A stretch of 12,176 bases of DNA from JBDRCC01 sp043822065 [NCBI: archaeon]. Its GTDB lineage: Archaea > Undinarchaeota > CAZHTU01. Below the pieces are notes generated by a model that was not told the DNA's origin, did no database searches, and was given only the letters and a program-made list of their open reading frames with translations. Location: the NCBI GenBank assembly GCA_043822065.1, contig JBDRCC010000015.1, forward strand, positions 1 through 12,176, in the 5' to 3' direction. A program made the translations under genes and the position numbers. Below, one piece after another: positions 1 to 10,528 of this stretch (positions are counted from its first letter, which is position 1; each line of letters starts with the position of its first letter).

Positions 1-786
1 TACAGGGACTGCATCCGCATGGTGGTGGACAAGAACATGAACGAGGCTGGGATGCGGGACTATGCCTCGCCAAGCGAGCTTGCTTTTGTGTCGCCTGGCT
101 CGGATACGGACACCATTGGCGACCCCGACATGAACACGAAAAGATATATCCTTGACGGGCTGCATACAAGCTCGATTTACACAGTGTGCACGGAGGGGAC
201 TGGGAGCCCGAGCTACTGCGACATAGACATCGAGCTTGGGAGGGATGTCGGAAGAGTGGACGGGTCTGAGGTCATCGGCGGCATAAAGCTCATACAGGTT
301 GACGTGTCAGGGAGCTCGGCGGCAAAGATGTACGTTTATGTGAAGCCCAAGGGCAATTTGTGGAGCGAGGCAACCCTGGTTTATAGCGCTGCCAGCGCCA
401 CGGACGGAATCCACAAGGCAGACCTTGGCGACGGAAGTGTGGTGGGGAGCATACGGATACACGCTGAGTTCGCAGGCGCTGCTGCGGGCGAACAGCTGAA
501 AGTAGTAGAAGTGGACGCCTACAAGGACGCGTACCAGTATTATACCTGCGCAGGGGTGGCCACGTCTGATGACACCCAAAGCGCGCTCTATTCTGTTAAA
601 TCCCCCTTCCTGTCCGCGTATGGAGAGGGGAATTTTGTGATGGTGCTCGCCACAAGGGAAAACAAAGGGCTTCTCGCGGTGGGCAACGGCGCCATCCCTA
701 TAGACAGCCTGATAACGGCAGTCCCGGTCTTCAACAAGATGAACCCGAGCGACCCGATAATAGTCAAAATGGGGGTACGGACGTGA
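1..786 (+). CDS. Probable secreted or surface protein, 5' end outside window
   Basis: The reading frame is open from base 1 to the TGA at 784-786, so the true start lies upstream; the first ATG at 19 is probably internal. I do not recognise the family. The visible roughly 260 residues are rich in Gly, Ser, Thr, Val and Asp, with alternating hydrophobic stretches typical of extracellular beta-sandwich domains, for example the run around KMYVYVKPKGNLW and the one around IRIHAEF. There are few Cys and no transmembrane segment in the visible part. The stop overlaps the GTG start of the next gene by 4 bp (GTGA), so the two are very likely co-translated and may form one cell-surface system. The surface location is inferred from composition and from the neighbour. 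Confidence 0.6.
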   Translation, partial: YRDCIRMVVDKNMNEAGMRDYASPSELAFVSPGSDTDTIGDPDMNTKRYILDGLHTSSIYTVCTEGTGSPSYCDIDIELGRDVGRVDGSEVIGGIKLIQVDVSGSSAAKMYVYVKPKGNLWSEATLVYSAASATDGIHKADLGDGSVVGSIRIHAEFAGAAAGEQLKVVEVDAYKDAYQYYTCAGVATSDDTQSALYSVKSPFLSAYGEGNFVMVLATRENKGLLAVGNGAIPIDSLITAVPVFNKMNPSDPIIVKMGVRT

Positions 787-1877
787 GGCGCGGAGACGTC
801 GAGGTCTACAACCTCATACTCGTGATAGTCGTGATAATGGCTGCAGGCATGCTCTTCAAGTCATCTGCAACCCGCCAGGTCGAGTTTTTCAGCTTCTTCG
901 TCACCGACGAGTCAGTCGTGCAGATGTCGAGCATCGCGGCTGTGGACGTTGTGTACCTTCAGGACGCCTTCGACAAGTCTGTTGAGCTTGCTGAGGCCAA
1001 GATATCGGCAGGCGCCCCGTCGAACAAATTCTGCTGCTATGCTAACACCTATATGAACCTTGCGATAAAAGGGCGCGGGATGGAGAACCTGATGAACTGC
1101 GTGCCTGTAAGCGGAGCCCAGTCCAAATGCCTTTACACTACGGGGAAAGGAGTCACAGTGTCCGGGACCACAGCCAATTACTGCGATGGGACTGTAACCT
1201 GCACATATGAGGCGTATGACCGGGCGGCGATACTCCAGGATATAAAGCTTTATTCTGGGACAACGCTGGCACCTGCCTGCCCATATACTGAGTGCGACAC
1301 TGATGGGGACGGGTGCCTGGACAAGAACGAGGACTATGCTGACTATGACGATGACTATGTGCCGTCGATAATCGACTCCTGCCCTAAAGGTACCTGCATG
1401 GGAGGGGGGTACTTCTGCAACGAGACTACCTGCAGACCGCAGTCCTGCGGGCAGAGTGAGAAGAAATCCCCTGACTGCAGCGGATCCATACCGACATGCG
1501 TGGATCAGTGCGGCATCACCTCGATGCCCGGCGGGGCTGACAACGACGGGGACGGCTTCCATATCCAGGGGAACCTGGATTCTGACAAGGACTGCTTTGA
1601 CCTTGACTGCGGGGCGGACACGAACCGCGACGGCATAGTTGACATATGCCTTAACGGTGACCGGGATGGAGACGGAATTATAGATGGGGTTGACACCGAC
1701 GTGGATGGGGATAATGTGTTTAATGATTACGATAATTGCCCGTATACCTCAAACGCTGACCAGCTGGACACTGACAGCGACGGCAGAGGTAATGTTTGCG
1801 ACAACTGCCCTGCGGTCGCCAACGCAGACCAGGCGGATGCTGATGCAGACGGAGTCGGGGACGCGTGCGAGGTATAA
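783..1877 (+). CDS. Membrane-anchored protein with thrombospondin type 3-like calcium-binding repeats
   Basis: This is a 364-residue protein starting at GTG 783 inside the previous stop (GTGA overlap). Residues about 9-27 form one hydrophobic segment preceded by MRRGD, which could be a signal anchor or a class III (pilin-type) signal; I cannot tell which. Residues about 30-165 are a Cys-containing region I do not recognise. From about 170 to the end run acidic DxDxDG repeats with NCP or DxCP cysteines (CDTDGDG, DNDGDG, DRDGDG, DTDSDG, DADADG), the pattern of thrombospondin type 3 repeats, which bind Ca2+ and act as rigid extracellular stalks. The protein ends abruptly at the last repeat (DACEV). 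Proteins of this type often continue into a Pro-rich linker, and such a stretch follows in frame after the TAA. Confidence 0.8.
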   Translation: MRRGDVEVYNLILVIVVIMAAGMLFKSSATRQVEFFSFFVTDESVVQMSSIAAVDVVYLQDAFDKSVELAEAKISAGAPSNKFCCYANTYMNLAIKGRGMENLMNCVPVSGAQSKCLYTTGKGVTVSGTTANYCDGTVTCTYEAYDRAAILQDIKLYSGTTLAPACPYTECDTDGDGCLDKNEDYADYDDDYVPSIIDSCPKGTCMGGGYFCNETTCRPQSCGQSEKKSPDCSGSIPTCVDQCGITSMPGGADNDGDGFHIQGNLDSDKDCFDLDCGADTNRDGIVDICLNGDRDGDGIIDGVDTDVDGDNVFNDYDNCPYTSNADQLDTDSDGRGNVCDNCPAVANADQADADADGVGDACEV

Positions 1878-6467: not shown

Positions 6468-9143
6468 ATGGCAGACGACAAAGAAAACCCAACGATTGAG
6501 CTGAGGGTAGCCAAGGCAATGCCCGAGGATGCGGAGCGGGGCATAGTCAGGATAGACTCAAAGGCGACGAAGATGGTAGGCGTCGCGGTGGGGGACATAG
6601 TCGAGATAATCGGTGGAAGGACAACGGCCGCGATAGTCGAAAGGGCTTACCCAAGCGATGTTGGCCTTGGCGTCATAAGGATGGACGGGCTCATAAGGAA
6701 GAACGCGGAGACGGGCATAGGGGAAAGTGTCAAGGTCAAGAAAGCGGAAATCTTTGAAGCGAAAAAGGTGGTAATCGCACCGACACAGGAGCTCGGCGGG
6801 CAGCTAGTCGTCCAGGGGATTGAGCGGCTGCTTATCGGACGGCCTTTTGTCAAAGGGGACATACTCGCACCCATACAGAGGCGCGGCGGGGGCATAGACA
6901 TAAACAGCCTCTTCAGCGAGTCGTTCGGGCTGCCCATATTCGGCGGCGGAATTGGCGGAATAAAATTCGTAGTTGCAAGCACCCAGCCGAAGGGCGTGGT
7001 AATAGTCACTGACGTGACTGAGATTGAGGTCAGCCAGCAGGCTGCGGTTATAAAAGATGAGAAGCTCCCTGACGTAACTTACGAGGACATTGGCGGGCTG
7101 AGGGATGAGATAAAGAAAGTCCGCGAGATGATAGAGATACCACTCAAGCACCCAGAGGTATTCGAGAGGCTCGGCGTCGAGCCGCCGAAAGGCGTGCTTT
7201 TGTACGGCCCGCCTGGAACAGGAAAGACGCTTCTTGCGAAGGCGGTTGCAAACGAGACTAATGCCAACTTTATCCTCATAAATGGCCCGGAAATAATGTC
7301 GAAGTTCTACGGCGAGTCGGAGAAGCAGATAAGGGACATATTCGACAATGCGCAGAAGAATGCGCCGAGCATAATATTCATCGATGAGCTGGACTCAATC
7401 GCCCCGAAGAGGGAGGAGGTAACCGGTGAGGTCGAGAGGCGGGTTGTCGCCCAGCTGCTTTCCCTGATGGACGGCCTCCAAGCGAGGGGGCGGGTAATAG
7501 TCATAGGCGCGACGAACAGGCCGGAGGCGCTCGACGTTGCACTCAGGAGACCGGGGAGGTTTGACAGGGAGATAGAGATTGGCGTGCCAGACCGCGACGA
7601 CAGGAAAGAGGTTCTCCAGATACACACGAGGAGGATGCCGCTTGGTTGGGAACAAATCAAGACGTATGTAGCGCCATATCTATTAGAACTGCAAAAAATT
7701 TCGAGAATCGATGATAATACAATACATATCAGCGCTAAGATTGGCATTGACACAGATGGGTCTATGAAAATGCCAGGGGGAGATCTATTCTTTTATGCTA
7801 AAGATTTGAACGAAAAGTATTCTGCCATTGATAAGTATTCTACAACGGTTCCTAAGGAGGGTATATTAGAAGTGGGTAAATCAAAAAAACTCCCCCACGA
7901 GGACTATATTCGATTTAAAAATTCCCAGTTCACAGATGGAGAAACGTATGCAATCGACTATTGGATTAAAGCTAAACGCGGGGCGTCTATTATATTTGGT
8001 TGGGGCACTACATCTAGCTCGACCACGATAAGTATCGGTAATGAGATTGACCTCGACGCCCTTGCGGACATAACCTATGGGTATGTTGGTGCAGATCTGG
8101 CAGCGCTCACGAAAGAAGCCGCGATGGCGACGCTGAGACGGGTTATGGAGAAGGGCGAGTTCAAGCTCGACGAGAAGGGGGGAGCGATACCGCCGGAGAC
8201 CCTGAAGAAGCTAATAGTCGAAAAGAAGGACTTTGACGAAGGAAGGCGGCTTGTCGAGCCGTCAGCCATGAGGGAGGTCCTGTTCAGGAAGCCAACCACT
8301 ACCTGGGATGACATCGGTGGATTGGAAGAGGTCAAGGCCCAGCTCAAGGAGACTGTGGAATGGCCACTCGAGGATCCGGAGTCGTTCAAGAGGCTCGGGA
8401 TAAAGCCGCCGAAGGGCGTCCTGCTGTTCGGGCCGCCGGGGACGGGAAAGACGCTCCTTGCGAAGGCTGTCGCGAACGAAAGCGACGCAAACTTCATTTC
8501 AGTGAAAGGGCCTGAGCTCATCTCAAAGTGGGTAGGCGAGTCCGAGAAGCACGTCAGGCAGATATTCAAGAAGGCGCGGCAGGTTGCGCCCACGATAATA
8601 TTCTTCGACGAGCTGGACTCAATCGCCCCGAAGCGCGGCTCGGAGATTGGGGTTAAGGTCGGAGAGAGGATAGTCGACCAGCTGCTGACAGAGATGGACG
8701 GCATGGAGGAGCTTGAGGGAGTCATAGTCATAGGCGCGACAAACCGCCCGGACATAATAGACCCTGGGCTGCTGAGGCCGGGACGGTTTGACAGGCACAT
8801 ACTGACGCCAGTCCCGGACAAAGCTGGAAGGCTCAAGATATTTGAGGTGCACACCAAGAACATGCCGCTCGACAAGTCAGTCGGCCTGAAAAAGCTCGCG
8901 GATATGACTGACGGGTACGTCGGCGCTGACATTGAGGCGCTGTGCCGCGAGGCTGCGATGAACGCGTTAAGGATTGACAAGAAGGCAAACAAGGTCGACA
9001 TGAACGACTTTGAGGTCGCATTCACCCATGTCAACCCGACGATGACAGAGGGGATGAAGCACAATTATGAGGGCATACTTAAGGACTTCACGACCCGGGC
9101 AAGCATCAAACTAGATAAGGATGTAACCAGGTACTTAGGATAA
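6468..9143 (+). CDS. cdc48: Cdc48/p97/VAT-type AAA+ ATPase with a 131-residue insertion in the D1 ring
   Basis: This is an 891-residue double-ring unfoldase. The N domain covers about 1-190. D1 has Walker A GPPGTGKT (247-254), Walker B FIDELD (304-309), sensor 1 ATN (348-350) and arginine fingers in [10 protein letters not shown] (R361, R364). D2 has Walker A (655-662), Walker B FFDELD (712-717), ATNRPD and LRPGRFDR. All catalytic residues are present in both rings. The hexamer threads substrates through its pore and feeds them to the proteasome. Without residues 394-524 the protein would be 760 residues, close to the usual archaeal length. The insertion sits between the D1 large subdomain and its helical lid. 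The C-terminus ends [11 protein letters not shown]. The same last ten residues and stop are encoded again 121 bp downstream with different codons. The final eleven codons are unusually AT-rich for this gene. Confidence 0.96.
7647..8039 (+). other. In-frame foreign insertion in cdc48 (131 codons)
   Basis: Counted directly, 153 of 393 bases are G or C (39%), against 116 of 180 (64%) in flanking gene sequence. The block contains no stop in the gene's frame and uses codons rare in the rest of the gene. Removing residues 394-524 joins MPLG to [12 protein letters not shown], which aligns without a gap to [16 protein letters not shown] of D2; the block is therefore a precise insertion. Gly codons GGT sit at both edges (7644-7646 and 8037-8039), so a 3-bp duplication or microhomology is possible. 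The peptide has no Cys, no intein ends, and alternates hydrophobic and polar residues as beta strands do. The stretch [18 protein letters not shown] followed by DYWIKAK resembles by eye a LamG/concanavalin-like jelly roll, but this is weak. I do not recognise the family. Confidence 0.8.
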
Positions 9144-9601: not shown

Positions 9602-9634
9602 TTGCGTTTACCTCAATCAGCATATCGTTACCTC
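9601..9634 (-). repeat. map-end / small-gene-start repeat, copy A (in use for map)
   Basis: On the minus strand it holds the real end of map (PEVTIC-stop) overlapping a start MLIEVNA, with GAGGT upstream. Relative to copy B the start codons differ by two silent changes and one Val/Leu change. The gene that would follow is lost after seven or eight codons. Confidence 0.8.
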
Positions 9635-10528
9635 AGGCTTGTCCTTCACAATCACGGTGTGCTCTGACTGCGAAACGACGCCCCTTTCCTTCTCTATTAA
9701 TATTGGGTACGAGTATAAAGCTTTTGCTTGGGTGAGCTGGTTAAGGGCGAGGTACTGGGTTAGCGGAGGGAGCTTAAGCCACCTGCTTGCAAAGGGAAGC
9801 TTATGGTAGCGCTCCTTCGCCAGCTTCAGTATCGTCTTTGCCTCGCGCATCCTGACCGGCTTGTCCGCGAGATAGCTGAATATCATTGACTCCGGTGCGT
9901 CCTTTATCATCCCCACGCCGTCAGTCGCGAACGGCTCGATTGCTATGACCATGCCCTCTTCGAGGACGAAGCTTCCGGACGGAACGTTGGGGATGTTTAC
10001 CCCGCCGTGAACCTTGTACTGGTCTAGGGTGTGGCCGGAGAGGTTCGAGACCGGCTTGAACCCGAAGGATTGTATTGTCTCCTGTATTTTTGCGCCGATG
10101 TCCTTGACGCAGGTTCCCGGAACGCACATCTTTGTCGCCTCGGCAAGCGCCTTTTCTGACGCCTTTATCAGGCCGGCGTGCTTCCCTGAAAAGTCAAGGC
10201 TGAACGCAGTGTCTGCGATGTAGCCATCTATGTGGGCGCCGATGTCGACCTTGAGCAGGTTTTCGCCGACGGTTAGCCTGTCGTTTGTTACAGGAGTGTA
10301 GTGGGCCGCAACCTCGTTGATGCCCAGGTTTATTGGGAAGGCAATCCCGGCGCCAAGGTCGCGAATCATCTTCTCGCCGTCGTTTGCTATGTCAAGCAGC
10401 CGTGAGTCTGCGGTAATCGTCTTCTTCAGGTGGTCGACAACCTTCTTTGCAATCCTGCCGGCGTCCCTATACTTCGTAAAGTTGGTCGGTTCGCCTTGCT
10501 GTCTCTTTCCAGTCGAATTTTCCTGCAT
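9617..10528 (-). CDS. map: Methionine aminopeptidase, type II
   Basis: This is a 303-residue pita-bread-fold metalloprotease that removes the initiator Met in the cytoplasm. All five metal ligands are visible: D95 and D106 (in KVDIGAHIDGYIADTAFS), H166 (SGHTLDQYKVHGG), E198 (AIEPFATDG) and E289 (SEHTVIV). Their spacing matches archaeal type II enzymes, as does the insert of about 60 residues between H166 and E289. H76 in NEVAAHYTP is the usual substrate-side His. ATG 10528 is preceded by GGAAAGG, and no nearer start exists before the conserved KYRDAGRIA. This gives a 17-residue extra N-terminus that overlaps the glycosyltransferase gene by 62 bp. The C-terminus PEVTIC overlaps a start codon of the (disrupted) small gene. 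Confidence 0.95.
   Translation of the reverse strand: MQENSTGKRQQGEPTNFTKYRDAGRIAKKVVDHLKKTITADSRLLDIANDGEKMIRDLGAGIAFPINLGINEVAAHYTPVTNDRLTVGENLLKVDIGAHIDGYIADTAFSLDFSGKHAGLIKASEKALAEATKMCVPGTCVKDIGAKIQETIQSFGFKPVSNLSGHTLDQYKVHGGVNIPNVPSGSFVLEEGMVIAIEPFATDGVGMIKDAPESMIFSYLADKPVRMREAKTILKLAKERYHKLPFASRWLKLPPLTQYLALNQLTQAKALYSYPILIEKERGVVSQSEHTVIVKDKPEVTIC

What the first reader, a model, noticed from the sequence alone, without database searches (positions are those of the whole stretch)
7647..8039. Precise 131-residue foreign insertion in the D1 ring of an intact Cdc48
Deleting residues 394-524 gives an exact, ungapped alignment of D1 ([16 protein letters not shown]) with D2 ([16 protein letters not shown]), so the block was placed exactly between two codons. 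Its G+C is 39% (153/393) in a gene that is about 64% G+C immediately around it, and it contains no stop in frame. It would project from the loop between the large ATPase subdomain and the helical lid of all six subunits, next to the D1 subunit interface. All catalytic residues of both rings are kept, so the gene looks functional. A new substrate-binding or partner-binding domain on an essential unfoldase, or a mobile in-frame coding element, are both possible. Part of it ([18 protein letters not shown] then DYWIKAK) looks by eye like the LamG jelly-roll pattern of phage or surface proteins.
Basis: partly seen in the sequence, partly recalled or inferred. Interest (0 to 1): 0.85.

Follow-up and report, generated by a model that had tools for sequence, protein, structure and literature searches.

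The report
Foreign-looking insert in archaeal Cdc48
An archaeal gene for the essential protein-unfolding machine Cdc48 carries an extra in-frame 131-residue block of alien DNA composition, at a loop where many other archaea have gained different, helix-type additions, so the spot looks like a natural place for bolting on new parts.

Summary
Window 7647-8039 is a 393-bp, stop-free, in-frame insert in an otherwise intact cdc48 (6468-9143). Cutting it out leaves [16 protein letters not shown], ungapped against insert-free relatives. Its GC3 is 0.374; the 2058 other 131-codon windows measured are all at least 0.588. Its ends are ambiguous by 3 bp.

Inserts of 40 or more residues sit there in 26 of 86 archaeal rows, needing 15 gains or losses (12 forced), and in 6 of 30 loci fetched without using the insert. 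The other 31 inserts examined fall into 8 sequence groups. This one matches none of them and is the least helix-prone and most beta-prone of the 32.

Foreign origin is likely but unproven: no donor was found, and some shared inserts at the site are also GC3-poor. LamG is only hinted at, and if real the domain is cut short. Best reading: a real, loss-free, in-frame capture of a beta-rich coding fragment at a permissive loop, making a peripheral ring decoration of untested function. Without reads an assembly artefact is not excluded.

The parts
6468..9143 (+). cdc48 (VAT/p97-type double-ring AAA unfoldase), 891 codons plus stop, insert included
   Evidence: Pfam CDC48_N, CDC48_2, two AAA and two AAA_lid_3 stretches; best solved relative is the VCP-like ATPase 5g4f, 790.8 bits
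6468..7646 (+). Host part 5' of the insert: N domain and D1 large subdomain, ending ...[10 protein letters not shown]
   Evidence: G+C 0.558, GC3 0.682; alignment to 5g4f runs to residue 396, within 3 residues of the junction
7644..7646 (+). GGT, left copy of the 3-bp repeat at the two junctions
   Evidence: Slide ambiguity of 3 bp
7647..8039 (+). The 131-codon insert (equally 7644-8036), alien codon usage, beta-prone
   Evidence: beta-only single-sequence model, pLDDT 66.7
7899..8039 (+). Insert residues 85-131 ([11 protein letters not shown]...TISIG), weak LamG- or CBM-like stretch
   Evidence: Weak LamG-profile match at residues 85-124; CBM_4_9 E 0.036, below cut-off
8037..8039 (+). GGT, right copy of the 3-bp repeat
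8040..9143 (+). Host part 3' of the insert: D1 lid ([19 protein letters not shown]...) and D2 ring
   Evidence: G+C 0.561, GC3 0.728; alignment to 5g4f resumes at residue 529

Best explanation
In one archaeal lineage related to UBA543, about 390 bp of coding DNA of alien composition was captured in frame, without loss of host codons, in the loop between the D1 large subdomain and its helical lid of an intact Cdc48. The gene keeps its frame and its ring motifs, so it probably makes a working hexamer with up to six extra beta-rich modules at the base of the D1 lids. The loop tolerates this because it is a recurrent expansion point of archaeal Cdc48. By analogy with the coiled-coil middle domain inserted in the small subdomain of ClpB AAA-1, the module may dock a partner or tune the ring; a nearly neutral passenger is about as likely. 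Shown: the insert, its frame and composition, the empty site in kin, and other inserts at the same loop. Inferred: the capture event, expression, folding and any function.
For: Ungapped empty site in kin. GC3 0.374 against at least 0.588 in 2058 comparison windows, and a synonymous-codon score of -0.40 against a minimum of +0.06 in 210 comparison windows (the reference codon table was made from those same genes). The four rows grouped with the window in the tree at 99% SH-aLRT (L023, L086, L087, L091) have no insert, nor does the fragmentary L092 (HSPs meet at the site). Recurrence at the loop: 26 of 86 rows, 15 changes, at least 12 forced; 6 of 30 loci fetched with an insert-free query; 11 of 50 genomes with 73 or more extra residues between residue 392 and D2. 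The inserts start at insert-free residues 392-401 of about 760, so a random in-frame insertion would fall there 1 to 2% of the time (my arithmetic, made after the fact). D1 up to the junction is modelled at pLDDT 77-93 after its first ten residues.
Against: No donor and no second copy in anything searched. Other inserts at the loop are also GC3-poor against their own gene: L004 -0.23, L012 -0.22, L066 -0.22, L085 -0.26, window -0.33. One insert group shared by diverged genomes (L004, L005, L064, L080, L134) is negative in all five, so low GC3 can persist. The closest kin are only about 69% identical over 720 columns, so the event need not be recent. Inside D1 the insert is modelled at pLDDT of about 29-52 per block. 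No reads are available.
Confidence: 0.58

Rival explanations
1. An old lineage-specific lid domain, inherited vertically in a branch not sampled here, which is AT-rich because codon use in lid inserts is relaxed, not because it came from elsewhere recently.
For: Long branch of the window row (0.51). Several other inserts at the loop have GC3 lower than their gene by 0.2 or more, including members of a group shared by diverged genomes.
Against: The window has the largest deficit of the 26 rows (-0.33) and falls far below every other gene piece measured around it, where the lowest whole-piece GC3 is 0.611. None of the five relatives with the site readable has it. It is beta-prone, unlike the other 31.
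Confidence: 0.22
2. Assembly or library artefact: a fragment of another organism's coding DNA joined into the contig.
For: No homologue anywhere searched; alien composition; no reads and no second genome with the block; the window's own genome is not held.
Against: Both flanks are kept to the codon and the frame is kept. Only 3 bp are shared at the ends, too few for an ordinary short-read k-mer misjoin (recalled knowledge). It falls in a loop where other archaea carry inserts.
Confidence: 0.15
3. A mobile in-frame coding element (like the palindromic elements in Rickettsia proteins) that spreads between genes.
For: In-frame, stop-free, no loss of host codons; a 3-bp repeat at the ends could be a target duplication.
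Against: Single copy in the window; 0 of 6 genomes of the nearest group match. Only weak internal inverted repeats, 20 nt at 75% and 15 nt at 80% complementarity. The 3-bp repeat arises by chance in 4.7% of trials.
Confidence: 0.03
4. A removable element: an intein, or an archaeal mRNA intron cut at a bulge-helix-bulge.
For: Exact restoration of the ancestral sequence on removal.
Against: The block starts with W (or G) and is followed by N (or G), so the intein ends C/S ... N + C/S/T are missing (intein rule recalled). Pfam finds no family in it. No bulge-helix-bulge at the four equivalent cuts; one candidate nearby (7636-8034) against 0.32 expected by chance, and it would not restore the ancestral site.
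Confidence: 0.02

Closest known systems
Other lid-loop inserts of archaeal Cdc48 (e.g. L004, L014, L064, L085, L088-L090, L134)
   Same: Same protein, same loop (insert-free residues 392-401), 54-211 residues, in frame
   Different: No sequence match to the window's insert. Helix-former fraction 0.45-0.63 against 0.33 here, beta-former fraction 0.11-0.29 against 0.35. GC3 deficit smaller (26 rows)
ClpB/Hsp104 middle domain
   Same: A foreign-to-the-fold domain inserted in the small subdomain region of the first AAA+ ring, facing the outside (PMC4023160, passages seen)
   Different: The middle domain is a long coiled coil; this block is beta-prone. The exact strand position was not compared; this is analogy, not kinship
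VAT / VCP-like ATPase of archaea (5g4f, 5vc7)
   Same: Same N-D1-D2 protein; the alignment covers both flanks of the insert
   Different: The alignment stops at residue 396 and resumes at 529; the structure has no such block
Laminin_G_3 (PF13385) domains of DPANN surface proteins
   Same: Residues 85-124 of the insert align weakly with the start of the domain; the family is common in the neighbouring phylum, 45 of 60 genomes
   Different: Below any accepted cut-off; only about the first third of the domain would be present

Membership tests
Cdc48/VAT/p97 | CDC48_N, CDC48_2 and two AAA modules with lids | tested here: met
   All over their Pfam cut-offs; 790.8 bits to VAT
Cdc48/VAT/p97 | Walker A and B, sensor and arginine-finger motifs in both rings | tested here: met
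   [30 protein letters not shown] and RPGRFDR read in both rings and aligned with VAT; the motif meanings are recalled
Laminin_G_3 | Match over the curated cut-off | tested here: not met
   No Pfam family at E up to 10 for the insert; home-made profile 7.1-9.0 bits, 6th of 5002
Laminin_G_3 | Complete beta-sandwich domain of about 150 residues | tested here: inconclusive
   Aligned part covers profile positions 4-47 of about 157 and ends near the insert's end; the beta model has no clear match
Intein | N-terminal C/S and C-terminal N followed by C/S/T | tested here: not met
   Insert runs W...IG then N, or G...SI then G
Archaeal BHB intron | Bulge-helix-bulge at the cuts that restore the gene | tested here: not met
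   None at the four equivalent cuts; one chance-level candidate nearby
Palindromic in-frame element | Palindromic ends | tested here: not met
   Only weak internal inverted repeats
Palindromic in-frame element | Several copies in the genome | not testable with these tools
   Own genome not held; single copy in the 12-kb window
ClpB middle-domain-like insert | Coiled coil in the small subdomain of the first ring | tested here: not met
   Beta-prone composition and all-beta model; only the general place is alike

The most novel reading that the evidence does not exclude
A truncated piece of a foreign surface-type beta-sandwich protein (LamG- or CBM-like) was captured in frame into an essential unfoldase and is being turned into a new ring domain. 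It would be the beta-type case among otherwise helical inserts at a loop of archaeal Cdc48 that works as a natural domain-insertion hotspot.
Probability: 0.3. Interest if true: 0.65.

Novelty: new variant of a known kind. Interest (0 to 1): 0.47.

Why it matters
Domain insertion into a working, essential hexamer is a basic route of protein innovation that is rarely caught with its codon scar still visible. Here one loop of archaeal Cdc48 seems to have taken up unrelated blocks again and again, so the question of why this loop, and what the blocks do, can be tested with insert-free and insert-bearing sister proteins (for example L085 against L093). It may also show how DPANN and other archaea without known Cdc48 cofactors could build adaptors into the ring itself; that last point is inference.

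Tried and rejected
Searches for kin of the insert. Viral contigs: three 8-mer scans, with 8, 277 and 39 pattern matches and none confirmed. Species genomes: 56 pattern matches, none confirmed. Phage records: 7 at E 5-10, at most 31% identity. Plasmids: none. PHROGs: one at E 0.33. PDB sequences: one at E 1.4. Archaeal genomes: 0 of 6, 5 of 279 at E up to 0.01, about what chance gives, 0 of 29, 0 of 115. These answers carry no positive control, as the tool itself says.

LamG. The one hit that lies in a 1702-aa surface-type ORF (L096, 43% over residues 85-131) is a LamG domain by eye and scores 107 bits on the home-made profile, to which it itself belonged. In one search the insert ranked first above 1000 shuffles (9.8 bits, best shuffle 9.4), but that profile held one wrongly extracted row (L125). 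With L125 removed it ranked 6th of 5002, with or without L096. Three of the 30 LamG loci (L108, L113, L122) were not used. Pfam instead offers CBM_4_9 at E 0.036 for the last 51 residues, below its cut-off. Left as a hint.

Fold. The single-sequence model is all beta (pLDDT 66.7, pTM 0.62). Foldseek top rows are clathrin adaptor mu domains with TM 0.4 and rmsd near 12; the viral library gives none at E 0.001 or better; VIA-align rows are tied near Z 8 among sandwich folds, 30 of 999 at Z 8 or more. This shows a common arrangement, not a family. A LamG row is not among those listed, which excludes nothing. Within D1 the insert is not confidently folded.

Literature. Listings of five searches (10, 4, 12, 12 and 4 papers shown) name no paper on inserts at this loop by title or abstract start. 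Passages of PMC5070193 (no occurrence of insertion), PMC5559722 and PMC4023160 were seen; no paper was read whole. Absence from print is not claimed beyond these searches.

Full report
WHAT IS THERE. The window holds an archaeal gene row: a thrombospondin-3-repeat protein, a Band-7 protein, a SpoIIM-type membrane protein, a MinD/ParA-type ATPase, phenylalanyl-tRNA synthetase beta (minus strand), cdc48, a small membrane ORF, an M24 peptidase and a glycosyltransferase. The cdc48 ORF 6468-9143 is intact and has the N domain, two AAA rings and lids; its best solved relative is the archaeal VCP-like ATPase 5g4f. The alignment to that protein stops at residue 396 and resumes at 529.

THE INSERT. Residues 394-524 (7647-8039) are extra. 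Insert-free relatives read MPLEPDVDLDEWADVT (L086), MPLEKDVNLDKWADVS (L023/L081) and MPLESKVNLDKLADIT (L087) where the window, without the block, reads [16 protein letters not shown]. So no host codon seems to be lost or doubled, apart from GGT, which stands at both ends and leaves the cut free by one codon. The block has G+C 0.389 and GC3 0.374; 2058 sliding windows of equal length from 10 of 11 other gene pieces lie at 0.588 or above. Its synonymous-codon score is -0.40 against at least +0.06 in 210 windows of the reference genes. A segmentation blind to the alignment puts the low-G+C stretch at 7651-7976, with the claimed ends inside the 2-lnL ranges taken one by one. One of 20,000 base shuffles keeps the frame open, so the block is coding sequence read in its own frame.

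RELATIVES. The whole genome is not held. The nearest row in the tree is L086 (69% over 720 columns), and the window groups with L086, L023, L087 and L091 at 99% SH-aLRT; none of these four has an insert. L092, a fragment, also shows the site empty; the sixth genome of that group has no comparable match (G006, best E 2.2e-6). These relatives are not close, so the event is bracketed only loosely.

THE LOOP IS A RECURRENT INSERTION SITE. Among 86 Cdc48 rows (94 extracted, less four short ones and four repeats of the same genomes), 26 including the window have 40 or more extra residues at this loop, and the tree needs 15 changes, 12 of them forced by starred branches. The tree is a quick one with SH-aLRT only, and 80 of the loci came from a search with the insert-bearing protein, so their share is biased. 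A second sample avoids that: in 60 genomes drawn from the phylum of G002 and searched with the first 393 residues only, 6 of the 30 loci fetched have 40 or more extra residues there, and 11 of the 50 genomes with both rows listed have 73 or more extra residues between residue 392 and D2 (in one of the 11, G103, D1 and D2 lie in different open frames). The other 10 genomes were not measurable: 4 without a listed D2 row, 5 with D1 broken earlier, 1 without a D1 match. Sister pairs with and without inserts occur, for example L085 and L093, L051 and L047, L053 and L038, L001 and L018. The matching loop of D2 is also expanded in several rows.

HOW THIS INSERT DIFFERS. The 32 inserts extracted form nine groups by BLASTP at E below 1e-4, the window alone in one; grouping of coiled-coil-like sequences may be partly by composition. 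The window's insert has the lowest helix-former fraction (0.33; others 0.45-0.63) and the highest beta-former fraction (0.35; others 0.11-0.29). Its model from a single sequence is all beta. It has the largest GC3 deficit against its own gene (-0.33), but L085 (-0.26), L004 (-0.23), L012 and L066 (-0.22) are not far, and the group L004, L005, L064, L080, L134 is negative in all five members. Low GC3 is therefore evidence for, not proof of, recent foreign origin.

WHAT THE BLOCK MIGHT BE. No family, donor or second copy was found. The last third resembles the start of LamG domains weakly, or a CBM_4_9 domain weakly. If either is right, the insert ends inside the domain, which would fit a captured fragment better than a complete transplanted domain.

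MECHANISM. Shown: an in-frame block, intact rings, an empty site in kin, a loop that takes inserts. Inferred: translation as part of Cdc48, a ring with six decorations at the base of the D1 lids, tolerance because the loop lies outside the ATPase core. [quoted passage not shown] Cofactors of p97 bind the N domain at the side of the hexamer towards the N-D1 interface in the ADP form (PMC5559722, passage); whether the loop faces that side was not measured here. Docking or regulation by the block is a guess; a neutral passenger is as likely.

ARTEFACT. Against an artefact stand the exact site, the kept frame, the mere 3 bp of shared ends and the fall into a loop that other archaea use. The frame is partly a selection effect, since the finding was noticed because the gene is intact; the place is not, and by my arithmetic has a chance of 1-2%. 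Reads would settle it.

VERDICT. The wider point, a recurrent insertion loop in archaeal Cdc48 with one beta-type, alien-composition case, is what deserves attention.

Noticed in passing
L061, L051, L028 (Cdc48 ORFs of 1256, 1447 and 1359 aa): Intein-like inserts of 461-498 residues that start with S or C and end in HN before S, in D1 (L061) or D2 (L028, L051); L028 and L051 also have a lid-loop insert.
   Followed up: no
L006-L009, L013, L017, L024-L026, L028, L045, L079: The equivalent loop of D2 (insert-free residues about 670-677) is also expanded, by 26-68 residues, so both rings have a permissive loop.
   Followed up: partly
G081, G100, G110, G112, G118: D1 match ends at residue 285-314 in frames of 1249-2573 aa: probably inteins in the D1 core.
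   Followed up: no
L057, L071: Two Cdc48 genes in tandem in the same locus.
   Followed up: no
window 783-1877: Protein with thrombospondin type 3 repeats, upstream of the Band-7 and SpoIIM-type genes.
   Followed up: no
window 9617-10528: M24 peptidase gene downstream of cdc48; in several DPANN loci (e.g. L010, L030, L076) a homologue also lies beside cdc48, a possibly conserved neighbourhood.
   Followed up: no
G103:C5:35644-37975: D1 and D2 of Cdc48 lie in different open frames (564 and 347 aa) about 580 bp apart: a frame break or a sequencing error near the same loop.
   Followed up: no
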